In this document: one piece after another, positions 18,433 through 35,719 of the stretch
How the letters are laid out: every line of letters starts with the position of its first letter
How positions within the stretch are numbered: position 1 is the stretch's first letter
Assembly (NCBI RefSeq): GCF_002858765.1
Contig: NZ_PJRP01000007.1
Location: 62,001 to 126,000 of the forward strand
Length of the DNA stretch: 64,000 nt
From: Cupriavidus pauculus
GTDB taxonomy: Bacteria > Pseudomonadota > Gammaproteobacteria > Burkholderiales > Burkholderiaceae
Direction: 5' to 3'
Translations under genes and position numbers: made by a program
The notes under the pieces: generated by a model
Told to the model about the DNA's origin: nothing
The model's input: the letters and a program-made list of their open reading frames with translations, nothing else
The model's database searches: none

Positions 18433-18549
18433 GGTTGCCTCGCTGGTGCAGGAAAATGACGGCCGCACGCCACCCTGCACGGCGCAGGGTGCGGCCAGAT
18501 ACGACTCAGGTAAAGGGTCAGGGAGGGACGCGCCGCCTGGGCGCGGCGA

Positions 18550-20448: not shown

Positions 20449-20564
20449 GGTCTCTCTCTGCCTAACGTTCGGTTTGCCAGTGGACAGCAATGGATCGATA
20501 TACCATGCTCCCCACCGCCGATGCGCCCAAGGCGCACCATCGCATCCCAAACAGTAGCAGATGT

Positions 20565-20894: not shown

Positions 20895-22477
20895 TTACTT
20901 GAACGGCGTCTGCAAAATTCCCATCACGGTCCGGATGCCGTCCTGATAGTTGCCGATCCGCATGTTCTCATCGAAGCTATGCTGGTTGTTGTCGGCATTG
21001 ACCAGGGGCACGATCACGAATGGCGACTTCAGTGCCTGTACGGCGGCGCCCGTCGGCACCGTCCCGCCCATCATGCGAATCTGCACGGGAGGCTTGCCGT
21101 AGGTGTCCCGCATAACACCTTGCAGCCATTTGCTGACCGGCGCATCCAGGTCCGTCCGCGCCGCCGAGCTCGATGCCGATACCTCACCAGCGGTCAGCGA
21201 CGCCAGCTTCGGGTACCGTGCCCGTTCCTGCGCTGTGGGCTCGCCATTAACGAGGTGATAGCCCTGCTTCTCAATATGCTTGCGCAGCAGCGCCACCAGC
21301 GTTTCGGGCGGTGTCTCCGGCACCGTACGCAGATCAATGTCGGCAATCGCCACTTCCGGGATGATGGTCCGCGCTTTGGGGCCGACGTCGCCCGCGACGA
21401 TGCCGCGCACGTTCAGGCTCGGATACTGCATCGCCTCCTGGTAATTCGCACCGACCTTCTCCGCGCTGGCGATGCCCAGCCGACGCTTCAAGGCAGCCTC
21501 ATCGTCCGGCACGGCCGCCATGATCTTCCTGGCGCGTTCGTCGAATTTGACCGGGGTGTAGTAGCCGGGAATGGTGACGCGGCCATTCTCGTCCTTCATC
21601 GATGCCAGCAGACTCGCCATGCGTTGCACCGGATTGGCGGAGTAGTTGCCGTAGTGGCCGCTGTGCAGCCCTTGGCTGGCGCCAAAGACCTTCAGTTGCA
21701 CCAGTTGAATGCACGGTTGCCGAATACCAACGTAGGCTGATTGCTCTGGTGCATCGGGCCGTCAAAGATGACCATGCCATCATTGCGAAGTAGCGCAAGG
21801 TTCTGCGCAATGACCTGACCAAGCGAAGGCGAACCCTTCTCTTCTTCTGAGTCGAGCAGTACCTTGATGTTCACCCCCGGATCCACCCCCGCCGCCTTGA
21901 GCGCGTCGAAAGCTGCCAGGAACATCACGATCGGTCCCTTGTCGTCCGATGAAGACCGCGCAAACAGGCGCCACTCGGGGTCAACCTGACCACCGTAAAG
22001 TTTGTCCAGCGGCAGCGGCTCCCATTTACCATCGGCCGAGCGCGCCTTGAGCGTGGCTTCCCACGGACTCTTCTGCGCCCATTGGGATGGTGTCACCGAC
22101 TGGCCGTCCAAATGCATGTAGAACAGCACGGTCTTCCGCGGCGCTGTCGCTGCTGCGCCGGCGGGGGCCGTGTATTCGGCATACATCATGGGCTTGTCGC
22201 CATTTGCCAGCGCCCGCGCCTGGAATCCACGGCGGGCAAACGCCTTGACGAGCCAGTCAACGTTCTTTTCGATATCGGCGGGCACCGTGGCATCGTTCGG
22301 AATTGCCAACAGTTCGACCCACTCGCGATAGCTGGCGGCTGCCGCGCGGTTCGCCGACTGTTCCAGCTGACTGCGATCGAGCGTGGCAGCGTTTGCCACA
22401 CCCAGGCAAGCCAGGGCGATCGATGCCATGAGTGGCAGTCTGCGGGAACGATTGGGGGTGCCCGATGGGGTGCGCAT
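20895..22477 (-). pseudogene. M20 metallopeptidase split by a single-base frameshift
   Basis: Two adjoining frames make one M20 peptidase. The first part (22477 to 21692) has a signal peptide (LPLMASIALACLGVANA) and the M20 motifs FYMHLDGQSV and DSEEEKGSPS. It then runs out of frame at TLVFGNR and stops after five odd residues. The remainder (LQLKVFGASQGLHSGHYGN onwards, to 20895) continues in the neighbouring frame. Adding one C (plus strand) near 21711-21712 restores GNRGIQLVQLKVFGAS. The ATG at 22477 has AGGAG upstream. Either a natural null mutation or a sequencing error; the protein would be an exported dipeptidase-like hydrolase of about 527 residues. Confidence 0.85.
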
Positions 22478-22535
22478 GTCTCTCCTCGTTGGTCGTTGTA
22501 TGACGACATGCATTATGGCCGCAGATCGTGCTAAC

Positions 22536-22574
22536 AAAAAAGCCCCGCCTGCCGGGAAAGTCGGCGGCAGGGCG
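22536..22574 (-). terminator. Rho-independent terminator of the long catabolic operon
   Basis: On the minus strand, CCTGCCG (22571-22565) pairs with CGGCAGG (22554-22548) around a 10-nt loop, flanked by further G-C pairs and followed by six T residues (22541-22536). It lies 24-62 bases after the MFS gene stop and before the M20 start, so it marks the 3' end of the operon that begins near 34.6 kb. Confidence 0.8.
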
Positions 22575-22597
22575 AACGACGACACCGAGGGCGCCGC

Positions 22598-24064
22598 TCA
22601 GACCTCGAGTTCTTCAAGTACCTGCCCCTTGGTCTCAATGCCGAGGAAATGCACCGTGACCGCCGCCAGTAGTGGCACCACGGCGAGGCCATAGAACGCC
22701 ACACTCAGGTTACCCGACCCGATCGTCGACGCAATGATGCCGGGTGCGAAGATCGCCGAAACCTTGAGCCACGCGCCGCCCAACCCACAGCCCATCGCCC
22801 GCACGCTGGTTGGGTACAGTTCGGGCGTATAGACATAGGCCGTGATGAAACCACTCGCCAGGAAGCCCATCGCCATCGCACAGAACGTGGCCACCACATA
22901 CACTGACGACGCATGAAACACGCCTGCCAGGACCAGTGACGCGGCGCACAGCACGAACGATACGTTGATGACCGGCTTGCGTCCCACCTTGTCCACCAGC
23001 AGTGCGCAGACCAGCGAGCCGACCACCCCGAGCACCGACGCGCCGGCGGCCAGATTCAGCGCAAGCTGCAGCGGCGCGTGGTAGACCGTCTTGTACACTG
23101 TGGGCAACCATGTCGACAGCCCGTACTGGATAAAGCCACAGGTCGCCCACAGCATCCACACGGCCAGCGTACGCCCCAGGTAGGCCTTGCCCACAAGGTC
23201 ACGCACCCGGCGCCGCGTATGGTTGCCCATCGCGTCAAACTTCGATGTGTCCCCAACCGGCGCAAGCGGTTGCTTGGCACGTGCTTCGAATTGGCGCAGC
23301 GCCTGGTCAGCCTCCGCCAGTTGACCCTTTTCCGCAAGCCAGCGCGGCGATTCCGGAATCAGCCGACGCAGCACAAAGAACAGCACCAGCGGCACGCCAC
23401 CCAGGAAGTACATGACCTCCCAGCCATAGCGCGGCACCAGCACGGCGCCCAGCGCGTTCGACACCATCAGGCCGATCGGGAACACGATTTCATACAGCAG
23501 CACAAACTTGCCGCGTCCATGGGCCCGGGTCACCTCGTTGATGTAGGTCGCCGCCACGGGCAATTCGCCGCCAAGCCCGAGCCCCTGCACGATGCGCAGC
23601 AGCAGAAATATCTCGAACGATGGCGCGAATCCGCAGGCCAGGCTCATCAGGCCGATGATGCCCGCACTCCAGCCAATCGAACGCAGCCGTACAAATCGTT
23701 CGGCCAGCGCCGGAAACAGCAGCGCTCCCACCAGTTGACCTACCGAAGGCGCCGCAATGAGCAAACCAATCTGGCCAGGCGACAGCGACCATTTCGCGAT
23801 CAGGAGCGGCAGCGTCGCGGCAATGGCAATCACGTCAAAGCCATCGAAGAATGTAGCCAACCCGATCAGCAATCGTGCGCGCACGTGCATCAAGTTGCCG
23901 GGCATGCGCTCGATGCGGGCGATGATCTGCCCGCGTGTCACCTGCGTGGCAGACTGGGTCTGGGATTGCATCGCGGCATCGCCGGTCGCTGCGCCACCGT
24001 AGGCCACGGTGCCCGCCTGCGCGCCCTGCATCGAGGGCGCGGCGTCTTTTCTCTGAATCAACAC
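22598..24064 (-). CDS. MFS transporter, aromatic acid:H+ symporter (AAHS) type
   Basis: About 488 aa from a GTG at 24064 with GGAAAGAGA upstream; the frame extends to 24235, and an ATG ~17 codons inside is a third option. Twelve hydrophobic segments are visible. The first helix carries the AAHS motif GFDVIAIAATLPLLIAKW (D in TM1) and the loop-like motif GGELPVAATYINE is present. AAHS members import protocatechuate, 4-hydroxybenzoate and related acids with protons. It is the last gene of the long operon, ahead of a terminator, and is the likely inner-membrane uptake step. Confidence 0.9.
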   Translation of the reverse strand: MLIQRKDAAPSMQGAQAGTVAYGGAATGDAAMQSQTQSATQVTRGQIIARIERMPGNLMHVRARLLIGLATFFDGFDVIAIAATLPLLIAKWSLSPGQIGLLIAAPSVGQLVGALLFPALAERFVRLRSIGWSAGIIGLMSLACGFAPSFEIFLLLRIVQGLGLGGELPVAATYINEVTRAHGRGKFVLLYEIVFPIGLMVSNALGAVLVPRYGWEVMYFLGGVPLVLFFVLRRLIPESPRWLAEKGQLAEADQALRQFEARAKQPLAPVGDTSKFDAMGNHTRRRVRDLVGKAYLGRTLAVWMLWATCGFIQYGLSTWLPTVYKTVYHAPLQLALNLAAGASVLGVVGSLVCALLVDKVGRKPVINVSFVLCAASLVLAGVFHASSVYVVATFCAMAMGFLASGFITAYVYTPELYPTSVRAMGCGLGGAWLKVSAIFAPGIIASTIGSGNLSVAFYGLAVVPLLAAVTVHFLGIETKGQVLEELEV

Positions 24065-24191
24065 GGGTATCTCTTTCCGGAATCGTGTAGGGCAGTCACC
24101 CGCGTGGTCGCTTCGTCCCTGAACGTGCGGCTCTACCATGGCGGCGGGCAGTCTTCGTTGCCACGCCCCTTGGGGCGCGGCGTGGGTTCGG

Positions 24192-25148
24192 TCAGAGATC
24201 CAGCACCAGGCGCTGGCCCTTGCAACCGGACACACAGACCATCATGGTCTTGTTCGATGCACGCTCGCTAATACTGAGCACGCTGTCGCGATGATCGGGA
24301 CAACCCTCGATCACCGCCGTTTCGCACGAGCCGCACACGCCCTCGCGGCAGCTGTACTCCACCTGCACGCCCGCCTCCAGCAGGGCGTCGAGCAGCGACT
24401 TGCCGGACGGTACGCGCACATTCTTGCCAGAGCGCTGCAGTTGCACGCTGTACTCGCCCTCTTGGACGGATTCGGTCGCGGGGTCTGCGGCGAATCGTTC
24501 GATGTGGACGTTGGGGTAGTCGTGCGCTTCGCAGGCTGACTCGAACGCGTTCAGCATCGGGCCCGGGCCGCAGCAATAGAAATGCGTCGTCTTGTCCTGG
24601 CCGGCCAGCATGGCCTTCAGATCCGGTGGCACACCCACTTCGTCATCGAAGTGAAAGCGCACGGCATCGCCATAGGCTGACAGTTGTTCGACGAATGCGG
24701 CCTCCGCACGGGAACGCGCGCAGTACAGCAACGTGAACGCTCGGCCACGCTCGGCGAGGCGCCGGGCCATGCACACGATCGGGGTCACACCGATACCGCC
24801 GGCCACCAGCACCGTGTGTGTGGCCTCCTCTTCCAGCGCAAAGTGGTTACGCGGCGTCGCGACGGTCAGCGTAGTGCCCACGCGCAGTTGCTCATGCACG
24901 AAGCGCGAGCCGCCGCGACTGTTGCGATCGTTGAGCACGCCGACGGTATAGCGATCGCGCTGCTCGGGCGCGCCACATAGCGAGTAGCTACGCACCAGGC
25001 CGTTGGCCAGATGCAGATCGATATGCGCACCGGGCGCAAACTCAGGCAACTGGGCACCTTCCGGGTCACGCAATTCGATGCTGACGACGCCGCGCGCCTC
25101 GAAGCGCATGGCCTGCACGCGCAGTGTCAAAGATTGGCTCGCACTCAT
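24192..25148 (-). CDS. VanB/PDR-family oxidoreductase (FMN, NADH, plant-type 2Fe-2S)
   Basis: 318 aa. Order: flavin-binding beta-barrel with RSYSLCG (~residue 54), NAD-binding domain with GGIGVTPIVCMARRL (~115), and a C-terminal ferredoxin domain with CREGVCGSCETAVIEGC (~270). This is the phthalate-dioxygenase-reductase/vanillate-demethylase-reductase layout. It should pass electrons from NAD(P)H to the Rieske oxygenase encoded at 33192-34247 in the same operon. A 127-bp gap containing a GC-rich hairpin separates it from the MFS gene. Confidence 0.93.
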   Translation of the reverse strand: MSASQSLTLRVQAMRFEARGVVSIELRDPEGAQLPEFAPGAHIDLHLANGLVRSYSLCGAPEQRDRYTVGVLNDRNSRGGSRFVHEQLRVGTTLTVATPRNHFALEEEATHTVLVAGGIGVTPIVCMARRLAERGRAFTLLYCARSRAEAAFVEQLSAYGDAVRFHFDDEVGVPPDLKAMLAGQDKTTHFYCCGPGPMLNAFESACEAHDYPNVHIERFAADPATESVQEGEYSVQLQRSGKNVRVPSGKSLLDALLEAGVQVEYSCREGVCGSCETAVIEGCPDHRDSVLSISERASNKTMMVCVSGCKGQRLVLDL

Positions 25149-25186: not shown

Positions 25187-26152
25187 TTAACGCTTTTCCG
25201 TCAGGAACTTGCCTTCCGGACCGCCGGCATTCTTCTGCCGGCGGGTATTGCCATCGATACCGCCCTCGATCGCCCATTCGGCGAACATAGTCGGGCCCGG
25301 CTCGAATTCGCGCGGCTCCCAATGGGCATCAAGCTGGTCTTCATCGGCGTAGTACTCGATCAGACCGCCCGCCGGATTCTTGAAGTACCAGAAGTACGCC
25401 GACGAGATCGGGTGGCGTCCCGGCCCGAGCTGCGTATCCCAGCCGGTGCGCGACATGTGCATGCCGCCGCCAAACACCTCGTGGATATCGCGTACCGTGA
25501 ACGCCACGTGATTGAGCCCGGCCTTGCCATGCGGCAGTTGCAGCAGGAAGAGGTCGTGGTGCCCCCCCTCTGCCGCGCAACGCAGAAACGCTCCGCGGTC
25601 GGGATAGTTATCCGACTGGACGAATCCGAACTTCTCCATATAGAAGCGCTCGGTGGCCTTCACGTCCTTCACAAAGAACACCACATGGCCCACCTCGATG
25701 GGAATCGCACGGGTGTAGATCGGGCTGCGTTCGTTCATGCGCGGCTTGTCATTCCACGTATTCATCCGCGCGCATTCCACCTGCACCTCATGCTTGCGCG
25801 ACACCTGAAAGCGCACCGCCAGGCCGTTCGGATCGGTGCAGCCAATGCGTGCACCGTCCTGCTGCAATACGAACGTCGGCTCGTCGCCAATACGCTCGCG
25901 GATCGCCGCCAGCGATGCCTCATTGTCGACGCCCCACACCACTTCGCGCAGCGTCGGACCTTCCTCGATGGCGGGCGGCAGCGCCGCATCGGACGTCTTA
26001 CGCACCAGCACGCGGCAGCCATTCAGCGTTTCGAAGTCCAGGCCCTGCGCGTCGTCGCGCTTGATGGCGAGGCCCCAGTCACCAAAGAAGCCGCGGCATG
26101 CGTCGAAGTCGTCGGCTCCGTAGACGATCTCGTCAATTCCCAATACTTTCAT
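25187..26152 (-). CDS. Two-domain VOC protein, probable type I extradiol dioxygenase
   Basis: 321 aa. The start at 26152 overlaps the upstream aldehyde dehydrogenase stop (ATGA); six more codons lie upstream in frame. It has two glyoxalase/bleomycin-resistance (VOC) modules. The C-terminal module has candidate Fe(II) ligands in GHVVFFVKDV (His), GLNHVAFTV (His) and GLIEYYAD (Glu), the spacing expected for type I extradiol enzymes such as catechol 2,3-dioxygenase. Ring cleavage of a diol made by the Rieske or SDR steps is therefore plausible. The substrate is unknown and a non-dioxygenase VOC role is not excluded. Confidence 0.82.
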   Translation of the reverse strand: MKVLGIDEIVYGADDFDACRGFFGDWGLAIKRDDAQGLDFETLNGCRVLVRKTSDAALPPAIEEGPTLREVVWGVDNEASLAAIRERIGDEPTFVLQQDGARIGCTDPNGLAVRFQVSRKHEVQVECARMNTWNDKPRMNERSPIYTRAIPIEVGHVVFFVKDVKATERFYMEKFGFVQSDNYPDRGAFLRCAAEGGHHDLFLLQLPHGKAGLNHVAFTVRDIHEVFGGGMHMSRTGWDTQLGPGRHPISSAYFWYFKNPAGGLIEYYADEDQLDAHWEPREFEPGPTMFAEWAIEGGIDGNTRRQKNAGGPEGKFLTEKR

Positions 26153-27633
26153 TTCCAGTCTCCGGCCCACGGCAGCGGTTGTTCATTCAGTCCCCAGTAC
26201 ACGCTCTTTTGCTCCATGTACTGCAGGATGCCAAGTCGTCCCTTCTCGCGGCCCAGGCCGCTGTCGCGCCAGCCGCCAAACGGTGTCGAGATCGAGAACT
26301 GCTTGTAGGTGTTAATCCAGACGTTACCGGCTTGCACGGATCGTGCCACCCGCCACGCGCGCTTGTAGTCGCGCGTCCAGATGCCGGCCGCCAGCGCGTA
26401 GACGCTGTCGTTGGCCTGCTCGATCAGGTCTTCCTCGTCGTCGAACGGCATTGCCACCAGCACCGGCCCGAAGATCTCCTCCTGGCAAATGCGTGCGTTG
26501 TTGTCGAGCCCTTCGATGATGGTCGGCGTATAGAAGTAGCCGTTAGGCAGGCCGGCCACATCGGGGCGAATGCCGCCGGTGCGCAACTGGCCGCCGTCTT
26601 CCACACCCACCGCCACGTACGACTCGATACTGTCGCGGTGCCGGTCCGTGATCAACGGCCCCATCTGGGTGCGCTCGTCGGCCGGATCACCCACGCGCAG
26701 CTTCGCGGCGCCGGCAGCCAGGCGATCAATGAACGCCTCATACTGCGAGCGGGCCACGAAGAGACGCGAGCCGGCAATGCACGACTCGCCCGACGAGCTG
26801 AAAATGCCGTACAGCACGCCGTTTACCGCATGGTCCAGGTCCGCATCGTCAAAGACAATCGTCGGCGACTTGCCGCCCAGTTCCAGGGATACCGGCATCA
26901 TCTTGTCGGCCGCGATATGGGCAATATGTTTGCCCGTGGTGGTGCCGCCCGTGAAGGACACGCGGCGCACCAGCGGGTGCTTGGTAATGGCGTCGCCAAT
27001 CACGGAACCCTTGCCTGGGAGCACGCTGATCAGGCCTTTGGGCACGCCGGCCTCTTCACAGATGGCTGCCAGTTCGAGCGCCATCAGCGGTGTCACCTCG
27101 GCCGGCTTGACGATCACAGCGTTGCCGGCAGCCAGTGCGGGCGCCATCTTCTGCGCTTCGCTGGCGATCGGCGAGTTCCATGGCGTAATGGCCGCCACCA
27201 CGCCCATCGGCTCGTAGACGCTCATCGTCAGGCAATCACCGCGCTGCGGCGTGATCTGCTCCTCCAGCGTCTCCAGTGCGGCGGCAAAGAACTGGAACGT
27301 TGCAGCCGCGCTGGCCACCAACGCGCGCGTCTCGCTGATCGGCTTGCCATTGTCCAGCCGCTGGCGCTGGGCCAGCGCTTCGGACTTGGCACGGATCAGC
27401 CCGGCCACGCGATACAGCACGGCGGCGCGCTCGTGCGGCTTGCGCTGTGCCCAGCCGCTGACGCGGAAAGCCTGATGCGCGCCCTGGATGGCTTCCTCGA
27501 CGTCGGCCAGGCTCGCCGCGTTCAGTTCAGCCACGACTTCGCCCGTGGCGGGATAGCGGGTGGCATAGCGGTCTCCGCCGCCCAGGCGCCACTCACCGGC
27601 AATCAGGATAGGAAGGACTTGTTGCGTCGTCAT
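26149..27633 (-). CDS. NAD(P)+-dependent aldehyde dehydrogenase
   Basis: 494 aa, full length. Catalytic residues are present: N153 in PWN, E251 in LELGGKSP and C285 in SGESCIAGSR. The sequence is closest in style to the hydroxymuconic-semialdehyde/betaine-aldehyde/phenylacetaldehyde group. Beside an extradiol-type enzyme, oxidation of a semialdehyde ring-cleavage product is a reasonable inference. Its stop overlaps the VOC start by 4 bp, and its start is 15 bases after the aspartate dehydrogenase stop, so the three genes are tightly coupled. Confidence 0.93.
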   Translation of the reverse strand: MTTQQVLPILIAGEWRLGGGDRYATRYPATGEVVAELNAASLADVEEAIQGAHQAFRVSGWAQRKPHERAAVLYRVAGLIRAKSEALAQRQRLDNGKPISETRALVASAAATFQFFAAALETLEEQITPQRGDCLTMSVYEPMGVVAAITPWNSPIASEAQKMAPALAAGNAVIVKPAEVTPLMALELAAICEEAGVPKGLISVLPGKGSVIGDAITKHPLVRRVSFTGGTTTGKHIAHIAADKMMPVSLELGGKSPTIVFDDADLDHAVNGVLYGIFSSSGESCIAGSRLFVARSQYEAFIDRLAAGAAKLRVGDPADERTQMGPLITDRHRDSIESYVAVGVEDGGQLRTGGIRPDVAGLPNGYFYTPTIIEGLDNNARICQEEIFGPVLVAMPFDDEEDLIEQANDSVYALAAGIWTRDYKRAWRVARSVQAGNVWINTYKQFSISTPFGGWRDSGLGREKGRLGILQYMEQKSVYWGLNEQPLPWAGDWK

Positions 27634-27648
27634 GAGGAATTACTCGCT

Positions 27649-28461
27649 TCAGATCGACACCGCATGTGCGCGGTTGCCGAGGGCGCGTACAACGCTGAAC
27701 ACGGTCAGCGCGGACGTCTTGGGGTTGGCAGCCAGCGGTTTGCCGCGCATGGTCAGCTCGAAGCCACCAAATGCGCCGCGCGCTTCCACGTGGTGAACGT
27801 TCTCTACCGCCGACGGATCGGCCAGCAACTTGACCGCGGTGCGGTCCAGGCCCAGGCCGGCCAACGACACCGTGGCCGCCACGTTGGCATTCTTCGGATA
27901 GAGTCGGGCCGCCTCGCGCGCCGTGCCTTCGAAGATGACGGTCGGCTCGGTCAGCGCGTTCAGGTCGAAGAGCTGCTCTGCCGGCGTGCCGGTCCACGCG
28001 CGGGCCGGCTTGCGGCCCGTGTAGATCACCTCGTCCAGGCCACCCACGCGGGCAGCCGCCAGGGCGTCGATGGCGCCGATGGCGCCGGACAGCAGTTGCA
28101 CCTGCGTGTTGCCCCGGCGTGCGGCGGCTTCCAGGCGCTCTGCGAGGCCCGGCTCCGAGAGTGCCCCCACCGACACGACCAGGCACGGAATCCCGCGCTC
28201 CAGCGCTGGCACGACGTGCTCTTCCAGCGCCTGGTGGCCCGCGCATTCGACCAGCAGGTCCGGACGCTGATCACCGTCGGCCAGGCGCGTGGCCACACGC
28301 ACGTTGGGCGCCAGCGTCGACAGCGCTCCGCGCGCCTCGTCCATCGTGCCTTCGGGCACGATCACCACGTCGAACGCAACGTCCGGGTCGGACTTCAGCA
28401 GCTCAAGCACGCCACGGCCAATCGCACCGCAACCCACCATCGACACATGCAACATGGACAT
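27649..28461 (-). CDS. nadX: L-aspartate dehydrogenase family protein (NadX-like)
   Basis: 270 aa. The N-terminal Rossmann motif GCGAIG (residues ~10-15) is followed by VECAGHQALEEHVVPAL and the C-terminal signature YPKNANVAATVSLAGLGLDRT. This matches the AspDH family, and from memory it is very close to the R. eutropha aspartate dehydrogenase. The enzyme oxidatively deaminates aspartate to iminoaspartate/oxaloacetate, or runs in reverse with ammonia. Position between a ThDP enzyme and an aldehyde dehydrogenase of a catabolic operon suggests a use in degradation and not in NAD synthesis; an imine- or amine-handling step is a possibility. Confidence 0.9.
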   Translation of the reverse strand: MSMLHVSMVGCGAIGRGVLELLKSDPDVAFDVVIVPEGTMDEARGALSTLAPNVRVATRLADGDQRPDLLVECAGHQALEEHVVPALERGIPCLVVSVGALSEPGLAERLEAAARRGNTQVQLLSGAIGAIDALAAARVGGLDEVIYTGRKPARAWTGTPAEQLFDLNALTEPTVIFEGTAREAARLYPKNANVAATVSLAGLGLDRTAVKLLADPSAVENVHHVEARGAFGGFELTMRGKPLAANPKTSALTVFSVVRALGNRAHAVSI

Positions 28462-28467
28462 CTCCCC

Positions 28468-30165
28468 TCAGGCTGCTGTCGCCGCCGCATTGGCGATCGG
28501 GACCTGCTTGTTGACCGGCGGCCCGGCAAACACAGTCTTGAAGCTGCCGATCGACAGCATGTCGATTTCCAGCAGGAATGGACCGGGCTCCACCGTGGCC
28601 GCTTCCAACGCGACGCCGATGTCGGCGAGATCGCTCACGCGACGGTGACGCAGCGCCAGCGACTGGCAAAGCTGCGCGTAGTCTGGCGTGTGCAGGTCCA
28701 CATAGTGGCGCCGTCCGCCGTACTGCGCATCCTGGATATTCTTGATCACGCCGTAGCCCTTGTCGTTCATCAGCACGATGACCATGTCTGCACGTTCCTG
28801 CACGGCCGTTGCCAACTCACCCAGGTTCAGAATGAAGCCGCCATCACCGGCCAGCGTGAACGTCTTCTTGCCCGATGCCGTGGCGGCCGCGCCCACGGCG
28901 GCGCCAATGCCCATCGCCAGGCCCTGCCCAATGCCGCCGCCCAGTGCATGCACGCCGGCACGCGAATCGAACAGTTGCAGGTGACGGTTGCCCCAGGTGC
29001 TGTTCGACACGGTCACGTCACGCACCCAGTTGAAGTTGCGGCCCACGGCCTGCTGCAGCGCCTGCACCAATGCGCTGTACGGACCCAGGCCATCGACCAG
29101 CGCGCCCACGGCGGCGTCATGCGCACGGCGCAGGTCCGTGGCGAAGTTGCTGTCGATCTGCATGCGTCCTTCGAGCCGATCCGCAAGACCGTCCAGCGCG
29201 AGCGCAGCATCGCCGCTGACAAAGTCGTCGCTCTGGTAGCAGCGGCCTTCTGCGGCCGGATCTGCATCGATGCGCAGCAGCGGACGCGGGAGCTTCAGTT
29301 CGTACTTGAGTGTCTCGTTACCGCGCAGGCGCGAACCGACCACGACCATCGCGTCGCAGGTCTGGTAGAACGTTTCCACGGGCTTGTGCAGGTTATAGGC
29401 ACCCAGCGAGCGCGGATCATCTTCGGCCACGATGCCGCGGCCCTGCGTGGAGGTCACCACGCCAAAGCCCATGTCCATCAGGCGCTTGACCTGCTTGCTG
29501 GCGTGGCGGGCACCGCCGCCGAGCCAGAGCATCGGACGCTTTGCCTTCACCAGGCGCTCGGCCAGCGCGTCGAGCGCATGGGCCGACGGCTGGTGCTGGG
29601 GCACGGGCAGGGGTTTCAGGTCATTCGGCATCGGAATCAGGGCAGCCTGGATGTCGATGGGGATTTCGACGCTGACCGGGCCGGTGGGTGCGGTCAGCGC
29701 AGTCTGCACGGCGAGCTTGATCGTCGAGATCGCGGTATCGGCGCTGCGGATGCGAAAAGCAGCCTTGGAGACGGCTTTGAGCATCGTGAGCTGGTCCGGC
29801 GCTTCGTGGATGTAGGCGAGGCTCTGGTCCAGGTAGGGCGTTTCGATCTGGCCCGTGATGTGCAGCATCGGCGTACCCGCCGTCAGGGCTTCCACCATGG
29901 CACCGGCGGCATTGCCAGCGGCGGTACCCGTGCTGGTCAGGCACACGCCAAGGCTACCCGTGGTGCGTGCGTAGGCGTCGGCCATGTTCGTGCCGCCGGC
30001 TTCGCCGCGCGCCGGGACGAAGCGAATCTTGCCGCGCTCGCCCATGGCATCAAGGATGGGCATGTTGTGGATCGAGATCACACCAAACGCAGCCTTGACG
30101 CCGCATTGCTCAAGAAAGGCGGCAATGGCGCAGCCCACGGTGACTTGTTGTTGCTCGTTACGCAT
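28468..30165 (-). CDS. Thiamine-diphosphate enzyme (acetolactate synthase-like/2-oxoacid decarboxylase)
   Basis: 565 aa from the ATG at 30165; upstream codons in frame overlap the SDR gene and are not family-like. It has the three ThDP modules: PYR domain with the catalytic Glu in ARGEAGGTNMADAYAR (~residue 54), central NAD/FAD-like domain, and PP domain with GDGGFILNLGEL and NDKGYG (~430-465). Benzoylformate decarboxylase, acetolactate synthase and oxalyl-CoA-decarboxylase-like enzymes share this layout. The start overlaps the preceding SDR stop by 8 bp. It may act on a 2-oxo acid from the pathway; the exact reaction cannot be read from the sequence. Confidence 0.88.
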   Translation of the reverse strand: MRNEQQQVTVGCAIAAFLEQCGVKAAFGVISIHNMPILDAMGERGKIRFVPARGEAGGTNMADAYARTTGSLGVCLTSTGTAAGNAAGAMVEALTAGTPMLHITGQIETPYLDQSLAYIHEAPDQLTMLKAVSKAAFRIRSADTAISTIKLAVQTALTAPTGPVSVEIPIDIQAALIPMPNDLKPLPVPQHQPSAHALDALAERLVKAKRPMLWLGGGARHASKQVKRLMDMGFGVVTSTQGRGIVAEDDPRSLGAYNLHKPVETFYQTCDAMVVVGSRLRGNETLKYELKLPRPLLRIDADPAAEGRCYQSDDFVSGDAALALDGLADRLEGRMQIDSNFATDLRRAHDAAVGALVDGLGPYSALVQALQQAVGRNFNWVRDVTVSNSTWGNRHLQLFDSRAGVHALGGGIGQGLAMGIGAAVGAAATASGKKTFTLAGDGGFILNLGELATAVQERADMVIVLMNDKGYGVIKNIQDAQYGGRRHYVDLHTPDYAQLCQSLALRHRRVSDLADIGVALEAATVEPGPFLLEIDMLSIGSFKTVFAGPPVNKQVPIANAAATAA

Positions 30166-30961
30166 GACGGGAGAGTCCTCCGGAAATATCGATATGGCTG
30201 CCCGTGGTGTACGAAGACAACGGCGAGGCAAGGAACAGGATGGCGCGCGCGGCTTCCTGCGGCAGGCCGAGACGGCCCAGTTGAATGTGTTTCTGTTTCG
30301 CCAGACGCGCGGTCCACGCGGTCCAGTCCAGATGGCGATCTTCCTCCGGACGCGCATCAAAGCGGCGGCGCCATTGGCCGGATTCCACCAAGCCAATCAG
30401 GATGCCGTTGACACGTACGCCCTTGGGTGCAAATTCCGTGGCCAGCGAGCGCACAAGGTTGTGGACCCCGGCTCGCGCGGCGGACGTCGCCACCATGTGC
30501 GGCTCGGGCTGCGTGGCCAGCAGCGAGTTCACGCAGACGATGGCGCCCGCCTTCGATTGCTCGAGCTGCGGCAGGAACGCACGCGTCGGGTGAATGACCG
30601 AGAAGAACTTGAGTTGCAGCTCTTCCAGCCATGCGGCGTCTTCGGTCGTGGCGAACGTCGAGACGCGCCCCTGGCCGGCGTTATTGACAAGCATGTCTAC
30701 CGGACCCAGTTCGCGCGCGACGTCCGCGGCGAACGCATTGACCTGTTTGGGCTGAAGCACGTCGCACGTCGCGGCGTATAGGCGGCAGCCGACAAAGCGA
30801 TCGCGCAATGTGGCCTCAGCGGCGCGCAGCCGGGTGGCATCGCGGCCGCACATCGCCACAGCGGCACCCGCTTCCAGCAGCAATTCGACCGTGGCCAGCC
30901 CGATGCCGGAGGACCCGCCGGTCACGACGGCTACCTTGCCGTCGAGTTCAATCATGGACAT
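30158..30961 (-). CDS. SDR-family protein with a replaced catalytic Tyr/Lys
   Basis: 267 aa from the ATG at 30961 (GAGAGGGG upstream). The NAD(P)-binding motif TGGSSGIG (~residue 14) and NNAG (~90) are present. At the usual YxxxK position the sequence reads ATSAARAG, with Thr and Arg where Tyr and Lys are expected, so the standard SDR proton relay is missing. It may be a divergent but active subgroup or a non-redox protein. It starts 16 bases after the IclR 2 stop and overlaps the ThDP gene by 8 bp. Confidence 0.87.
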   Translation of the reverse strand: MSMIELDGKVAVVTGGSSGIGLATVELLLEAGAAVAMCGRDATRLRAAEATLRDRFVGCRLYAATCDVLQPKQVNAFAADVARELGPVDMLVNNAGQGRVSTFATTEDAAWLEELQLKFFSVIHPTRAFLPQLEQSKAGAIVCVNSLLATQPEPHMVATSAARAGVHNLVRSLATEFAPKGVRVNGILIGLVESGQWRRRFDARPEEDRHLDWTAWTARLAKQKHIQLGRLGLPQEAARAILFLASPLSSYTTGSHIDISGGLSRHA

Positions 30962-30977: not shown

Positions 30978-31844
30978 TCATTCGCGATGCATAGCAACCA
31001 CCTGACCCTGCGCACGTTTGACGTGTCGATGAGGCCGGTAGCCAAGCAGGCGCGACAATTCGCCTGCGGTTTCCCTGACTTTCCCGACCATCCGGTCGAG
31101 TTCTTCCTGCTGCAGTCGAGACGCCGGAATCGTCGCACCCAGTGCAGCGACAACCTTGCCGGTACGGTCACGCACCGGCGCGGCAATGGTGGATATGCTT
31201 GATTCAAAGAAGCCTTCGAGCAGCACGTAGCCGCGCTGCAGCACCTGCTGCACCAGTTCATGCAACGCTTCCACCGTGCGCGGCGTGTTCTCCGAATACA
31301 CCTGTAACTGGGCTTCCGGGTACAACTCTCGCAACTGATCCAGCCCCATATCCTCGAGCAGCACGTGGCCCAGTACCGTGGCATGTGCCGGCAGACGTGC
31401 GCCTACATTGACGTTGCTGGCGAACGGGCGAGAAGCCGCGGCCTTTGCTACGTACACGACCGACCGGCCATCACGCACGACGAGGTTGCACGGGTACTCG
31501 ATCTCGTCGCGCAGACGGTTCAGTAGCGGCCCGCCCAGCTCGGTCAGCTCCAGCGAGGCCAGATAGTCGAAGCCGAGTCGCAGCACCGCCAATCCCAGCC
31601 GGTACTCGCGACCGCCATCTGCACGCTCGACATAGCCAGTGGATTCCAGCGTGGCCAGCAGACGGAACACCGTCGAGCGCGGCACGTTAAGCCGGCGTGA
31701 CAGGTCAGCTGCGGACAGCACGCGGTCACGTGCACTGAATTCGGCCAGCAAGCGCAGGCCGCGCTCCAAGCCTGGGACGATGTACTTGTCCAGGCCCTCA
31801 GCGTGCAGGGCATCTACGGCGACAGTGTCAGGATTGGCGCTCAT
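30978..31844 (-). CDS. IclR-family regulator 2, inside the catabolic operon
   Basis: 288 aa with the IclR winged HTH (LSAADLSRRLNVPRSTVFRLLATLE) and effector domain. It is a close paralogue of IclR 1 (19627-20448) with the identical helix VPRSTVFRLLATLE; its C-terminus is longer and basic (HRHVKRAQGQVV). It is embedded between cupin and SDR genes, so it would be produced together with the pathway enzymes. Shared recognition helices suggest that both IclR proteins bind the palindrome repeated at 20565, 34666, 35692 and 36096. Confidence 0.92.
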   Translation of the reverse strand: MSANPDTVAVDALHAEGLDKYIVPGLERGLRLLAEFSARDRVLSAADLSRRLNVPRSTVFRLLATLESTGYVERADGGREYRLGLAVLRLGFDYLASLELTELGGPLLNRLRDEIEYPCNLVVRDGRSVVYVAKAAASRPFASNVNVGARLPAHATVLGHVLLEDMGLDQLRELYPEAQLQVYSENTPRTVEALHELVQQVLQRGYVLLEGFFESSISTIAAPVRDRTGKVVAALGATIPASRLQQEELDRMVGKVRETAGELSRLLGYRPHRHVKRAQGQVVAMHRE

Positions 31845-31866: not shown

Positions 31867-32403
31867 TCAGCGCTTGACCTTCGTCAGCGGGTGCTCGGGC
31901 GGATACGTCGGCGTGATCGGCTTCTTGGCGCCCAGCATCACGCACATCAGCGCATCTTCCTCGCCGATGTTGATTTCCTCGCGGTAGACGCCGGGTGGCA
32001 CCGACACCAGGTCACGGTCGGTCAGGATCGTCTCGTAGCGCTCGCCGTCCTTTTCCAGGATCAGTTTGATCTTGCCGCGCAGGATGAAGAACACCTCTTC
32101 CACGTCGGTATGCAGGTGCGACGGGCCTTCGTGGCCGGCGGGGATGATCATCGTGGAGAACGTGAAGTGCTCCGACGGTACGGTGTTGGTGTCGGCAGCC
32201 ACACCGGTGCCGCCCGTGCCCAGGTAGCGCATCTGCGCGCGGCGGTACTTCGGGTCGTAGTCGGCCTGGAACTTCAGCGCGTCCCAGTCATAGCGACGCG
32301 TGTTGAAGCGCGCCACGCGCGATTCCATCCACTTGTCGAACGAGGCGCCCTCAGGTTGTTCCCAGCTGCGCTTGATGTTTTCCTGTTGCGACAGATCGCT
32401 CAT
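31867..32403 (-). CDS. Cupin-domain protein
   Basis: 178 aa; AGGAAAAGG precedes the ATG. A single cupin barrel occupies residues ~75-165. The first metal motif is present (GPSHLHTDVEEVFFILRG: two His and a Glu), but the second motif (PPGVYREEIN) has Arg where the fourth ligand, His, is usual. Small cupins in aromatic pathways are dioxygenases, isomerases or decarboxylases; the function here is unknown. It lies between an SDR and IclR 2 in the operon with 22-25-bp gaps. Confidence 0.85.
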   Translation of the reverse strand: MSDLSQQENIKRSWEQPEGASFDKWMESRVARFNTRRYDWDALKFQADYDPKYRRAQMRYLGTGGTGVAADTNTVPSEHFTFSTMIIPAGHEGPSHLHTDVEEVFFILRGKIKLILEKDGERYETILTDRDLVSVPPGVYREEINIGEEDALMCVMLGAKKPITPTYPPEHPLTKVKR

Positions 32404-32428: not shown

Positions 32429-33199
32429 TCAGGGCATGACAAAGCCGCCGTTGACCGCCAGCGTCTGGCCGGTCACGAAACGGGCGAGATCGGACAGCGC
32501 GAACAGCACAGCGCCGCAGACATCATCGGGAACCTGTTCGCGTTGGATCGCGCGCTGGTTTCGGTACAAGTCGTGCCGGTGCTGCGGCACGTATTCGGTG
32601 GCCTCCACCAGCGTCAGGCCCGGTGCCACGGCGTTGACCGTGACGTTCGCGTCCCCCAGTTCACGGGCCAGCGAACGGGTCATGCCGATGATGGCGCTCT
32701 TGCTGGCCACGTAAGCCAGCAGGTTCGGTGCACCCCACAGCGGCGTGTCCGATGCCAGATTGATCACCGCACCACGGCCACTGGCACGCAGTGCGGGCGT
32801 GCAGGCGGCGGTCATCAGCCACGTGCCGCGCACGTTCACGTTCATCACGCGGTCCCACGTGGCAACGTCGAGTTCGGTCAGGTTGCGGCCACCGGAATCA
32901 GTCACTGCACCGTTATTGACCAGGCCGTCCAGACCGCCGAGCGCCTGCGCAGCGGCGCTGGCGCAGGCCTGCACCGACGCCGGATCGTTCAAATCGAGTT
33001 GCAGCGGCACCGCATGGAAGCCACGCGCCTTCAGTGCGGCGGCCGATTCCTCGACGCGGTCGCCCAGGATGTCGGCCATGGCAACGCTCGCGCCGGCTTC
33101 GGCAATGGCGGTGGCGAAGGCCAGGCCCAGGCCGCGCGCGGCACCGGTGACTAGCACCTTGCGGCCAGCAAGCAGGTTGGCGTACGGGTGATCAGGCAT
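32429..33199 (-). CDS. SDR-family oxidoreductase (classical)
   Basis: 256 aa from the ATG at 33199, which overlaps the Rieske oxygenase stop by 8 bp. It has the cofactor motif TGAARGLG (~residue 18), NNGAV in place of NNAG (~95), and the complete catalytic set with YVASK. It probably uses NAD(P)(H). Placement directly after a Rieske oxygenase suggests a cis-dihydrodiol or hydroxy-acid dehydrogenase, which is an inference from context. Confidence 0.9.
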   Translation of the reverse strand: MPDHPYANLLAGRKVLVTGAARGLGLAFATAIAEAGASVAMADILGDRVEESAAALKARGFHAVPLQLDLNDPASVQACASAAAQALGGLDGLVNNGAVTDSGGRNLTELDVATWDRVMNVNVRGTWLMTAACTPALRASGRGAVINLASDTPLWGAPNLLAYVASKSAIIGMTRSLARELGDANVTVNAVAPGLTLVEATEYVPQHRHDLYRNQRAIQREQVPDDVCGAVLFALSDLARFVTGQTLAVNGGFVMP

Positions 33200-34280: not shown

Positions 34281-34586
34281 TCAGGCGCCCAGGCGGCGCA
34301 TTTCGGAGAGGAAGCGTTCCTCGGTCCACGACTGCCCGTCAGCGGCCAGGAACCCGGCGTGGTTGAACGCGCGCACGATGTCTTCCGGAGATTTGGCGCC
34401 GCCCTCGAAGGCGGCTTCCAGCGCGTCGCCCAGCGCGTTCTCGTAGGCGGTGGGCGCGGCGGCGCGCGTCTGCCAGACGATGTTGGTCACCTGGCCGGGC
34501 TTCTCGATATGACCCTTGCCGGCAACGTTGTTGGGCGCGGGGCGCTCCCAGGGAACCAGGTTCGGGTTGTACGCGAGGCTTTCCAT
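34281..34586 (-). CDS. Small protein with recombinase-like HTH, Rieske-associated
   Basis: About 101 aa from an ATG at 34586 with GGAG nine bases upstream; longer forms from an ATG at 34601 or a TTG at 34631 are possible. The N-terminal part (YNPNLVPWERPAPNN) is extended and the C-terminal half (residues ~50-100; ALGDALEAAFEGGAKSPEDIVRAFNHAG) looks like a small helical, recombinase-type HTH module. I recall similar small proteins annotated beside Rieske oxygenases in betaproteobacteria. Its function is not established; a regulator or an oxygenase accessory are both possible. First gene of the long operon. Confidence 0.75.
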   Translation of the reverse strand: MESLAYNPNLVPWERPAPNNVAGKGHIEKPGQVTNIVWQTRAAAPTAYENALGDALEAAFEGGAKSPEDIVRAFNHAGFLAADGQSWTEERFLSEMRRLGA

Positions 34587-34665
34587 TGCGCTTTGCTCCA
34601 TGGCTTGCTTTGTGGGGGACGGCTGGCTCAATCCGCTGTCGCGCTCCTCGGCCTGACGCTGCTGC

Positions 34666-34804: not shown

Positions 34805-35698
34805 TCAGGTCTGCGAAAGCGTGCTACGGATCAGTCGTGCCACGGCCTGCGGCTGCTCGACGTAGCAGGCATGGCCGGCATCGGCGACAGCGTGAAATGG
34901 CACGCAGAAGCGTTCGGCCAGCGCAGCAGACGCTGCAGGCGTGGTGACCACGTCCTGCGTGCCGCATCCCACTTCCACCGGACGGGCGCGCGCTTCCAGG
35001 TATCGGCCGATGTCGTCGCCGCACAGAAGCGCTACGGCCTGACGATAGCCGTCCGGATTCAGTTTTTGCATGTTCCAACGCACCCATGCCTGCGCATCAG
35101 GTGTGGCCGACGGACTGAGCAAGCGCGTGGGGCCCCGTTGCGCCAGCCCTTCCACGCCCTGCGTTTCTAGCGCCGCGATACGCTGCCGGGCCACTTCACG
35201 CGATGTCTCTTCCTTGCCGGGCGCTCCGTAGCCAAGCGCGGGACTCAGCAAGAGCAACCGGGCGGGCTGCATCGCCGTCGACGCGTGGGCAGCGTACCCG
35301 GCTGCCATCAGTGCGCCCAGCGAATGGCCGACGATCAGGTCGGGGCGCACCTGCAGCGCCGCCAGCATCGCTTCGAGCCGCTTCGCGTAGTCATGCGCAT
35401 TGGGCGCCGGCATCGGCAACGGTGAAGAATGTCCGTACCCTGGCGCATCCCACGCGATCACACGTGCATGCGCCGCCAACAGGCTGGCACACGGCAGCCA
35501 AGAAGCCGCCCCAGAACTGATGCCGTGCAGCAGCACGATGATCGGCCCACGCGTACCGCCGATACGGCAAGCCACTCGGCTGCCGTCGTCGCCGGTCATC
35601 ACCAGTCGTTCGGCGAAATGACTATCCAGCGCGGCCAGCAAGTCGACGCCAGGTGGGAGTGCAGATTGGGGCGCAGATTGGGGCGCAGATTGTTTCAT
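34805..35698 (-). CDS. Alpha/beta hydrolase
   Basis: 297 aa from the ATG at 35698; an in-frame ATG at 35719 is another option and neither has a good ribosome binding site. Motifs: oxyanion loop LLHGISSG (~residue 62), nucleophile elbow GHSLG (~125), acid candidate GTQDVVTTP (~245) and catalytic His in DAGHACYVEQP (~275). The family includes MhpC-type C-C hydrolases of meta-cleavage products, which would suit the extradiol-type enzyme nearby, but esterase or lactonase roles are possible. The N-terminus has APQS repeats coded by a 12-bp tandem repeat, and a palindromic operator overlaps the start codon. Confidence 0.87.
   Translation of the reverse strand: MKQSAPQSAPQSALPPGVDLLAALDSHFAERLVMTGDDGSRVACRIGGTRGPIIVLLHGISSGAASWLPCASLLAAHARVIAWDAPGYGHSSPLPMPAPNAHDYAKRLEAMLAALQVRPDLIVGHSLGALMAAGYAAHASTAMQPARLLLLSPALGYGAPGKEETSREVARQRIAALETQGVEGLAQRGPTRLLSPSATPDAQAWVRWNMQKLNPDGYRQAVALLCGDDIGRYLEARARPVEVGCGTQDVVTTPAASAALAERFCVPFHAVADAGHACYVEQPQAVARLIRSTLSQT
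35661..35692. repeat. 12-bp tandem repeat, 2.7 copies
   Basis: GCAGATTGGGGC occurs twice exactly (35661-35672, 35673-35684) and is followed by a partial third copy to 35692. It encodes the Ala-Pro-Gln-Ser repeats at the hydrolase N-terminus. The unit is a multiple of three, so copy-number change would keep the frame. Confidence 0.85.
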
Positions 35699-35707
35699 AT
35701 ATGAAAT
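35692..35707. promoter_or_regulatory. Candidate IclR operator, copy c
   Basis: GTTTCATATATGAAAT is the most symmetric copy of the shared palindrome. It contains the hydrolase ATG at 35698, so a bound repressor would block both the start region and any promoter just upstream. If translation instead starts at 35719, the site would be intragenic. Confidence 0.62.
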
Positions 35708-35719
35708 ACATGTTTGCAA

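What the first reader, a model, noticed from the sequence alone, without database searches (positions are those of the whole stretch)
27649..28461. Aspartate dehydrogenase used inside a catabolic operon
NadX-type AspDH normally supplies iminoaspartate for NAD synthesis, but here no nadA or nadC is nearby and the gene is locked between a ThDP enzyme and an aldehyde dehydrogenase. It may deaminate a pathway intermediate, assimilate ammonia released from an N-heterocycle, or make aspartate as amino donor.
Basis: inference. Interest (0 to 1): 0.6.

Follow-up and report, generated by a model that had tools for sequence, protein, structure and literature searches.

The report
Aspartate dehydrogenase in N-heterocycle catabolic operon
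An enzyme usually linked to vitamin (NAD) synthesis sits instead in a widely shared bacterial operon that looks built to break down a nitrogen-containing ring acid, perhaps the tryptophan product kynurenate, where it probably turns the leftover nitrogen fragment into aspartate.

Summary
Confirmed: 27649-28461 (-) encodes an aspartate dehydrogenase (NF009827, 515 bits, cut-off 226), 6 nt from a ThDP gene and 15 nt from an aldehyde dehydrogenase gene. NAD synthesis genes nadA, nadC, nadB lie together elsewhere. Of 36 genus genomes searched, 36 have nadB; 25 have this AspDH, and the same 25 the operon's cupin. It is an operon gene, not an NAD gene.

Of the 80 best relatives kept, 74 carry seven core genes: cupin, alpha/beta hydrolase, SDR2, ThDP, AspDH, ALDH, VOC. 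Where the operon is stripped (four Pigmentiphaga-group loci) or split (L104), AspDH stays with cupin and hydrolase, not with ThDP-ALDH.

Best reading: the operon degrades an N-heteroaromatic carboxylate; cupin and hydrolase open the last N-ring and release aminofumarate/iminoaspartate, which AspDH reduces to aspartate. Kynurenate fits the gene set and balances, but substrate and steps are inferred. A Klebsiella AspDH matching that organism's copy of the operon has proven AspDH activity (PMC5554190). Ten searches of open-licence papers found no role assigned to this operon.

The parts
27649..28461 (-). aspartate dehydrogenase (AspDH), the finding
   Evidence: NF009827 515 bits, Pfam PF01958/PF03447, PDB sequence hits; H223, N191, N193 at least 98% invariant
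34805..35719 (-). alpha/beta hydrolase (ABH), start uncertain; proposed hydrolase of the N-acyl enamine from ring opening
   Evidence: PcaD-like scores below cut-off; S133, D256, H283 (numbering of the 304-aa ORF) at least 98% invariant in 95 sequences; model pLDDT 94.9, Foldseek
34281..34631 (-). small HTH_62 protein beside the Rieske gene (start uncertain)
   Evidence: PF20552, 90.7 bits
33192..34247 (-). Rieske oxygenase; proposed ring dihydroxylation
   Evidence: PF00355, PF19112; Rieske and iron ligands at least 98% invariant in 94 sequences; PDB hits incl. DdmC, carbazole dioxygenase and 2-oxoquinoline 8-monooxygenase
32429..33199 (-). SDR1; proposed dihydrodiol dehydrogenase
   Evidence: SDR families, best matches below cut-off, Pfam; YxxxK read in the sequence
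31867..32403 (-). cupin; proposed ring-opening dioxygenase
   Evidence: PF07883; H96, H98, E102 at least 98% invariant in 101 sequences, no third His among the invariant residues; best-ranked solved sequence and fold: QueD quercetinase, TM 0.41
30978..31844 (-). IclR-type regulator, PcaR/PcaU/PobR-like
   Evidence: TIGR02431 182 bits, below cut-off 285
30158..30961 (-). SDR2, PRK07062 family, without the usual YxxxK; proposed enone reductase
   Evidence: NF005468 456 bits, cut-off 266; T159 and R163 in 95 of 96 sequences
28468..30165 (-). ThDP enzyme, PRK07064 family; proposed 2-oxo acid decarboxylase
   Evidence: NF005470 934 bits, cut-off 495; E57 (numbering used there) at least 98% invariant in 103 sequences
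26149..27633 (-). aldehyde dehydrogenase
   Evidence: PF00171 569 bits; the NCBIfam matches shown are below cut-off; C285, E251, N153 at least 98% invariant in 102 sequences
25187..26152 (-). VOC extradiol-type dioxygenase; proposed first ring cleavage
   Evidence: PF00903; H162, H221, E272 at least 98% invariant in 92 sequences; PDB extradiol dioxygenases
24192..25148 (-). VanB-like ferredoxin reductase, likely partner of the Rieske oxygenase
   Evidence: Fer2, NAD_binding_1
22598..24235 (-). MFS transporter, aromatic acid:H+ symporter-like (start uncertain)
   Evidence: TIGR00895 217 bits, below cut-off

Best explanation
The gene is a fixed part of a conserved operon that breaks down an N-heteroaromatic carboxylate, most likely kynurenate (4-hydroxyquinoline-2-carboxylate). 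Proposed order: Rieske oxygenase plus reductase and SDR1 make the 7,8-diol; the VOC dioxygenase opens the benzene ring; SDR2 reduces the side-chain double bond; the ThDP enzyme decarboxylates the 2-oxo acid side chain and ALDH oxidises the aldehyde; the cupin splits the remaining dihydroxypicolinate ring between C4 and C5; the alpha/beta hydrolase cuts the resulting amide, giving 2-oxoglutarate and aminofumarate (= iminoaspartate). AspDH then reduces this imine to L-aspartate, its normal chemistry minus the ammonia step, keeping ring nitrogen and C4 skeleton as a metabolite. Shown here: operon membership, conservation, intact active-site residues, independence from NAD synthesis, and the bond of AspDH with cupin and hydrolase. 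Inferred: the substrate, every reaction step, and aspartate as product in the cell.
For: (1) nadA, nadC, nadB elsewhere; nadB in 36 of 36 genus genomes, AspDH and cupin in the same 25 of 36. (2) 74 of 80 loci have all seven core genes; the set recurs, with reordered genes, in Klebsiella, Acinetobacter and Vibrio. (3) Modules: four Pigmentiphaga-group loci keep cupin, ABH, IclR and AspDH and lack ThDP, ALDH, VOC, SDR2; L104 has cupin-ABH-IclR-AspDH apart from SDR1-IclR-SDR2-ThDP-ALDH-VOC-Rieske-VanB, each block with its own IclR. (4) Possible N-ring chemistry nearby: a FAD monooxygenase whose closest solved relative is 6-hydroxynicotinate 3-monooxygenase (one copy tested) is in 36 of 80 loci (33 at 73% identity or more, 3 Pigmentiphaga-group ones at 37-40%); a RidA homologue in 39 of 80; molybdenum hydroxylases lie downstream of the operon here and beside a second Rieske-ThDP-VOC set in Caballeronia NK8. 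(5) Cupin ranks nearest to quercetinase QueD. (6) The kynurenate scheme uses each catabolic enzyme once and balances. (7) The AspDH of the K. pneumoniae operon copy (L136, 254 aa) matches the primers of the characterised KpnAspDH, which has OAA/Asp-specific AspDH activity with amination above deamination.
Against: No assay, expression or growth datum for this operon's substrate. No kyn gene was noticed among the recurrent neighbour families looked at, though this was no systematic search; the genome's tryptophan dioxygenase is on another contig. The window's molybdenum hydroxylase has an aldehyde dehydrogenase large subunit (8gy3) and PaoC as nearest solved relatives, so it need not act on an N-heterocycle. 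The transporter binding protein tested is only distantly like taurine and THI5 binders, no hint of the substrate. Cupin lacks the third metal His and its fold match is weak (TM 0.41, with oxalate decarboxylases and sugar isomerases close behind). Three roseobacter clusters (L109-L111) have ABH, SDR2, ThDP, AspDH, ALDH and FAD monooxygenase (VOC in two of three, in all three) but no cupin in the stretches fetched. L117 has ThDP, ALDH, VOC and Rieske without AspDH; the same genome's cupin-ABH ends at a contig edge, L132. The same AspDH family occurs in other settings, incl. alone (L121) or with nadA (L133), and ThDP-linked rows are not one clade (7 changes). Known relatives also use OAA plus ammonium, so the enzyme need not see a preformed imine. 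No control was run for how often such neighbours flank unrelated operons.
Confidence: 0.4

Rival explanations
1. AspDH deaminates aspartate (or a like amino acid) to oxaloacetate, which the neighbouring ThDP enzyme decarboxylates and ALDH oxidises: a three-enzyme amino acid route.
For: ThDP, AspDH and ALDH are neighbours in most clusters seen; A. baumannii A1S_0956-0958 (AspDH, aldehyde dehydrogenase, acetolactate-synthase-like) is listed under amino acid catabolism and induced by mucin (PMC5757984, passage seen).
Against: In four Pigmentiphaga-group loci and L104 AspDH is separated from ThDP-ALDH and stays with cupin-ABH; does not explain Rieske, VOC and cupin.
Confidence: 0.12
2. AspDH assimilates free ammonia set free by the pathway, using oxaloacetate, so that nitrogen is kept and NAD(P)H is re-oxidised.
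For: Known relatives aminate oxaloacetate 6-8 times faster than they oxidise aspartate (26.5 vs 3.42 and 32.8 vs 5.1 U/mg; PMC5554190 passages).
Against: That paper reports relatively low ammonium affinity; the bond with cupin and ABH is not predicted by a general ammonia role.
Confidence: 0.2
3. The operon acts on another N-heteroaromatic or aromatic acid than kynurenate (for instance quinaldate, xanthurenate, a pyridine acid), with AspDH in the same or a related end role. (Not exclusive with the other rivals.)
For: Entry enzymes vary: Rieske+SDR1, FAD monooxygenase, phenol-hydroxylase-like protein, neighbouring Mo hydroxylases.
Against: The core set and its stoichiometry fit the recalled quinoline pathway closely.
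Confidence: 0.35
4. AspDH is a NadX that backs up NAD synthesis and sits in the operon by accident.
For: Automatic annotation says NAD biosynthetic process (for example); one relative, L133, does sit with nadA, 3-hydroxyanthranilate dioxygenase and kynureninase.
Against: nadB in 36 of 36 genus genomes whether or not AspDH is present; AspDH present or absent exactly with the operon cupin in those 36.
Confidence: 0.02

Closest known systems
ReuAspDH (Ralstonia eutropha JMP134, 'non-NadB type' AspDH) and KpnAspDH (Klebsiella pneumoniae 34618)
   Same: Same family; the C-terminus coded by the last printed primer, which I take for the Reu reverse primer (HAVSI), equals the window protein's end, and the Kpn primers match both ends of the AspDH of the Klebsiella operon copy L136. 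Passages of PMC5554190 seen; the original Reu paper is not held.
   Different: The passages seen deal with the enzyme, not with the operon or a pathway.
NadX / Thermotoga TM1643 AspDH (NAD synthesis)
   Same: Family, sequence match to solved structures and conserved residues.
   Different: Genome has nadB; gene sits in a catabolic operon.
Bacterial kynurenate (quinoline) pathway of the 1960s, steps to 5-(2-carboxyethyl)-4,6-dihydroxypicolinate (intermediates recalled; that certain pseudomonads turn kynurenate into glutamate, alanine and organic acids is stated in PMC11354673, passage seen)
   Same: Every recalled step has a fitting enzyme type in the operon.
   Different: No gene was found assigned to it in the listings and passages seen; the link is by logic only.
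Vitamin B6 breakdown: pyridine-ring dioxygenase plus E-2-(acetamidomethylene)succinate hydrolase (3kxp)
   Same: Ring opening followed by an alpha/beta hydrolase cutting an N-acyl enamine (function recalled); 3kxp is among the fold matches of the operon hydrolase (rank 34 of the 50 listed).
   Different: Other ring-opening enzyme and no AspDH (recalled); the fold match is generic.
Lumichrome (riboflavin) catabolic operon lum (PMC12746152, abstract and passages seen)
   Same: Also combines ThDP decarboxylase, xanthine-oxidase-type hydroxylase, Rieske, extradiol dioxygenase and cupin for an N-heterocycle.
   Different: Other organism; the word aspartate does not occur in the main text.

Membership tests
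Aspartate dehydrogenase (NF009827 / PF01958) | Full-length match above curated cut-off | tested here: met
   515 bits vs 226; PF01958 116 vs 27
Aspartate dehydrogenase (NF009827 / PF01958) | Conserved His and Asn residues and GxG nucleotide motif (roles recalled) | tested here: met
   H223, N191, N193, G10, G12 at least 98% invariant in 112 sequences
Aspartate dehydrogenase (NF009827 / PF01958) | Reversible L-Asp / oxaloacetate + NH3 activity | not testable with these tools
   Reported for KpnAspDH in PMC5554190 (passages); identity with the AspDH of the Klebsiella operon copy by primer match
NadX (NAD-synthesis AspDH) | Replaces nadB or is linked to nadA/nadC | tested here: not met
   nadA-nadC-nadB on contig C12; nadB in 36 of 36 genus genomes
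Kynurenate (quinoline) degradation pathway | Genes for ring dioxygenase + reductase, diol dehydrogenase, extradiol dioxygenase, 2-oxo acid decarboxylase, aldehyde dehydrogenase together | tested here: met
   All types present with intact residues where checked; functions inferred from family, so the row is met by type only
Kynurenate (quinoline) degradation pathway | Growth on / conversion of kynurenate | not testable with these tools
   needs strain or enzyme work
Kynurenate (quinoline) degradation pathway | Linkage to genes that make kynurenate | tested here: inconclusive
   tryptophan dioxygenase gene exists but on another contig; no kyn gene noticed among recurrent flank families, not a systematic test
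Cupin ring-opening dioxygenase (QueD-like) | Cupin fold with two His, Glu and a third His (recalled) | tested here: inconclusive
   HxH...E present, third His absent; best-ranked fold and sequence QueD, TM 0.41

The most novel reading that the evidence does not exclude
This operon, found from Cupriavidus to Pseudomonas, Klebsiella, Acinetobacter and Vibrio, is the missing gene set of the kynurenate/xanthurenate (quinoline) pathway. Its end module, cupin plus alpha/beta hydrolase plus AspDH, opens a picolinate ring so that its nitrogen leaves as iminoaspartate, which AspDH saves as aspartate: an aspartate dehydrogenase whose natural substrate is the imine itself.
Probability: 0.3. Interest if true: 0.78.

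Novelty: new variant of a known kind. Interest (0 to 1): 0.58.

Why it matters
Non-NadB AspDH enzymes are studied as catalysts, but in the papers seen I found no operon-level explanation for why bacteria keep them. If the reading holds, the gene set would give sequences to pathway enzymes that I recall as orphans, and would show how soil and host-associated bacteria remove kynurenate or relatives, which are signalling compounds in animals. The AspDH step would be an unusual case of a dehydrogenase salvaging a pre-made imine from a broken ring. It also corrects an automatic label, NAD biosynthetic process, carried by the operon's AspDH in several records (for example).

Tried and rejected
NAD synthesis (rejected). 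ThDP-ALDH as direct partners of AspDH (weakened). Riboflavin/lumichrome catabolism as the pathway: same enzyme kinds, but aspartate is not mentioned in that paper's main text. A. baumannii kynurenine cluster of PMC9162365: it is kynU/kynB-type, not this operon, in the passages seen. Viral contigs: 26 stretches matched a pattern, none was a relative. L126 (cupin-ABH-AspDH) first looked like a second, homologous case; its cupin gave no hit to the operon cupin profile and only a short blastp match (34% over 47 residues, E 4e-4 against five sequences), so I count it only as an analogue; its ABH does match the operon ABH profile (8e-20). Root-exudate paper PMC8079746 had nothing on this operon for the terms searched. 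A search for aminofumarate/iminoaspartate with AspDH gave nothing relevant in its listing. The solved relatives of the window's molybdenum hydroxylase are aldehyde-type enzymes, which weakens that line; on re-checking I lowered the main confidence from 0.42 to 0.40 for this.

The presence matrix drops tblastn matches covering under 45% of the query. L059 and L045 are cut by contig ends. Of the 20 stretches, 14 hold AspDH in the matrix (L101-L111, L113, L116, L120); of the other six, L112, L114, L118 and L119 are 12.5 kb or shorter, L115, L118 and L119 show a ThDP paralogue and no other core gene, and L117 has the upper genes without AspDH. Of the 28 plasmid records I opened six regions, and five of the 117 records plus two with other AspDH settings.

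Full report
Observation. The ORF at 27649-28461 on the minus strand is an aspartate dehydrogenase by NCBIfam NF009827 (515 bits, cut-off 226), by Pfam and by sequence match to three solved AspDHs. It starts 6 nt after the ThDP gene and ends 15 nt before the ALDH gene. The genome (7.4 Mb, 38 contigs) has Cupriavidus plasmid records as its nearest AspDH matches among plasmids (98% and 93%). It carries nadA, nadC and nadB side by side on contig C12. dN/dS of AspDH against four relatives is 0.057-0.141.

It is not an NAD gene. Among 60 relatives searched, 36 belong to the genus of the window genome (itself included). nadB is in 36 of 36. AspDH is in 25 of 36 and the operon cupin in the same 25; the other 11 lack both (one of the 11 is a 54%-complete assembly). 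A contrast case exists: in L133 an AspDH of the same family lies with nadA, 3-hydroxyanthranilate dioxygenase and kynureninase.

The operon. On the minus strand: alpha/beta hydrolase (ABH), HTH_62 protein, Rieske oxygenase, SDR1, cupin, IclR regulator, SDR2, ThDP enzyme, AspDH, ALDH, VOC dioxygenase, VanB-like reductase, MFS transporter. Of these 80: AspDH 80, cupin 79, ABH 79, SDR2 76, ThDP 76, ALDH 76, VOC 75, Rieske 76, SDR1 76, VanB 74; all seven core genes 74. The six exceptions are L045 and L059 (contig ends) and four Pigmentiphaga-group loci. Farther relatives keep the set with other orders and other entry enzymes: Klebsiella and Acinetobacter (SDR2-AspDH-ALDH-ThDP, with cupin, ABH, VOC, Rieske, SDR1), Vibrio (cupin-ABH-VOC-SDR2-ThDP-AspDH-ALDH plus a FAD monooxygenase, no Rieske match in the 23.6 kb held), Nitratireductor, Paracoccus and Pseudosulfitobacter (with a longer cupin, two cupin matches in the two cases L018 and L139). 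The ThDP family was found in 15 of 398 genomes of the phylum and 10 of 250 of the order.

Which partner does AspDH follow? In L064, L072, L073 and L100 cupin, ABH, IclR and AspDH remain (IclR matched in all four, as a separate ORF in three); ThDP, ALDH, VOC and SDR2 are absent. The tree, rooted at the midpoint only, places these four beside 17 ThDP-linked rows with further ThDP-linked rows outside, so this looks like loss of the upper genes. In L104 cupin-ABH-IclR-AspDH stand apart from SDR1-IclR-SDR2-ThDP-ALDH-VOC-Rieske-VanB (ALDH there is seen in the tblastn matrix). In Caballeronia NK8 an extra set Fdx-HTH62-Rieske-ThDP-VOC lies beside a three-subunit molybdenum hydroxylase and shows no AspDH, cupin or ABH in the stretch held; that plasmid also has a full copy. 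So AspDH goes with cupin and ABH. Against this: roseobacter loci L109-L111 have AspDH with ABH, SDR2, ThDP, ALDH and a FAD monooxygenase, and no cupin was found in the stretches held; L117 has upper genes without AspDH, with the same genome's cupin-ABH cut by a contig edge; AspDH also stands without cupin, ABH and ThDP in L121 and several other loci.

Active sites. Across orthologues, at least 98% invariant: AspDH H223, N191, N193; VOC H162, H221, E272; ABH S133, D256, H283; ALDH C285, E251; ThDP E57; Rieske C61, H63, C80, H83 and H173, H178, D294; cupin H96, H98, E102 without a third His (roles of these residues recalled from the families). SDR2 has Thr and Arg where the family usually has Tyr and Lys (95 of 96), which suits a double-bond reduction better than an alcohol oxidation, by inference. 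The cupin ranks nearest to quercetinase QueD by sequence (8e-7) and by fold (model pLDDT 78, TM 0.41); oxalate decarboxylases and sugar isomerases follow closely, so this is weak. The ABH model (pLDDT 94.9) matches many esterases and enol-lactonase; E-2-(acetamidomethylene)succinate hydrolase is among the 50 listed (rank 34), so this gives no specificity.

Signs of N-ring chemistry. A FAD monooxygenase (copy of L040 tested) has 6-hydroxynicotinate 3-monooxygenase as its closest solved relative (E 2.5e-87) and is in 36 of 80 loci, 33 at 73% identity or more and three Pigmentiphaga-group ones at 37-40%; NCBIfam puts its best match, below cut-off, on 3-hydroxybenzoate 6-monooxygenase. A RidA homologue (Pfam 51.5 bits; NCBIfam enamine/imine deaminase 42 bits, far below cut-off 222) is in 39 of 80. 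A molybdenum hydroxylase lies downstream of the operon in the window (15825-18480), near an IclR paralogue 76% identical to the operon regulator; its small subunit is also matched in L014, L021, L023 and L061. Its nearest solved relatives are aldehyde-type enzymes, so its substrate is open. The binding protein of the Pseudomonas transporter is only distantly like taurine and THI5 binders.

Pathway proposal. From recalled 1960s biochemistry, kynurenate is oxidised to the 7,8-diol, split at C8-C8a, reduced, decarboxylated to an aldehyde and oxidised to 5-(2-carboxyethyl)-4,6-dihydroxypicolinate. The operon has one fitting enzyme for each step, and three left over: cupin, ABH, AspDH. C4-C5 cleavage by a dioxygenase and amide hydrolysis would give 2-oxoglutarate and aminofumarate, whose imine form is the AspDH intermediate. 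The formulas balance at every step, and a monooxygenase acting on xanthurenate would enter at the same diol. A balance is a consistency check, not evidence of the reaction. A review passage says certain pseudomonads turn kynurenate into glutamate, alanine and organic acids (PMC11354673, passage). The genome has a tryptophan dioxygenase gene elsewhere.

What is known of the enzyme. PMC5554190 (passages read) purified KpnAspDH (254 aa): 26.5 U/mg oxaloacetate amination with NADPH, 3.42 U/mg aspartate oxidation, 3.9% and 3.5% relative activity with pyruvate and 2-oxoglutarate, relatively low ammonium affinity. Its Kpn primers code for both ends of the AspDH in the Klebsiella copy of the operon, and the last primer of its table, which I take for the Reu reverse primer, codes for HAVSI, the end of the window protein. 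The Reu and Pae papers are not held; I recall, unverified, a suggested link to PHB formation.

Literature. Ten searches in the held open-licence PMC set gave no paper assigning genes to the kynurenate ring steps or a role to this operon in the listings and passages seen; subscription papers are not held. PMC5757984 lists A1S_0956-0958 (AspDH, aldehyde dehydrogenase, acetolactate-synthase-like) as induced by mucin (passage); PMC12892962 lists an A. baumannii aspartate dehydrogenase among genes raised by vitamin B12, in a sulfur-acquisition group (passage), which my reading does not explain.

Verdict. Operon membership and non-NAD role: about 0.95. AspDH works at the end with cupin and ABH on a nitrogen fragment: about 0.6. 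Kynurenate as the substrate with imine capture: about 0.3.

Noticed in passing
window 30158-30961: SDR2 has invariant TxxxR in place of the SDR YxxxK (95 of 96 orthologues): a conserved, non-canonical short-chain dehydrogenase.
   Followed up: partly
window 20895-22585: M20 peptidase homologue in two overlapping ORFs in different frames, perhaps a frameshifted gene or sequencing error; no match in the seven relatives' loci checked.
   Followed up: partly
window 15825-18480 and 19627-20550: Two-subunit molybdenum hydroxylase, twin-arginine-like signal in the large subunit by eye, near an IclR regulator 76% identical to the operon's; nearest solved relatives are aldehyde-type enzymes.
   Followed up: partly
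L140 (Caballeronia NK8 pNK84): Second, partial copy Fdx-HTH62-Rieske-ThDP-VOC with a three-subunit molybdenum hydroxylase and SRPBCC protein, on the same plasmid as a full copy.
   Followed up: no
L126:7797-12304: Unrelated-looking cupin, alpha/beta hydrolase, AspDH, SDR, NIPSNAP and proline racemase in a row: possibly another pathway ending at AspDH.
   Followed up: partly
L133:10671-15611: nadA, AspDH, 3-hydroxyanthranilate dioxygenase, kynureninase and a FAD monooxygenase in one cluster: parts of both the aspartate and the tryptophan route to quinolinate together.
   Followed up: partly
L019:9509-11444 and L124:5892-10206: AspDH near a DapA-family gene: annotated as dihydrodipicolinate synthase family in L019, DapA-like by eye in L124.
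   Followed up: no
window 34281-34631: Small HTH_62 ('recombinase-like') protein keeps company with the Rieske gene across genera, even when it moves; function unknown.
   Followed up: no
window 26098-30411 (+): 1437-aa open frame antisense to SDR2-ThDP-AspDH-ALDH; probably a by-product of high GC codon use.
   Followed up: no
A. baumannii ABUW_2943 (PMC12892962, passage): An aspartate dehydrogenase is raised by vitamin B12 and grouped there with sulfur-acquisition genes; whether it is this operon's gene was not checked.
   Followed up: no
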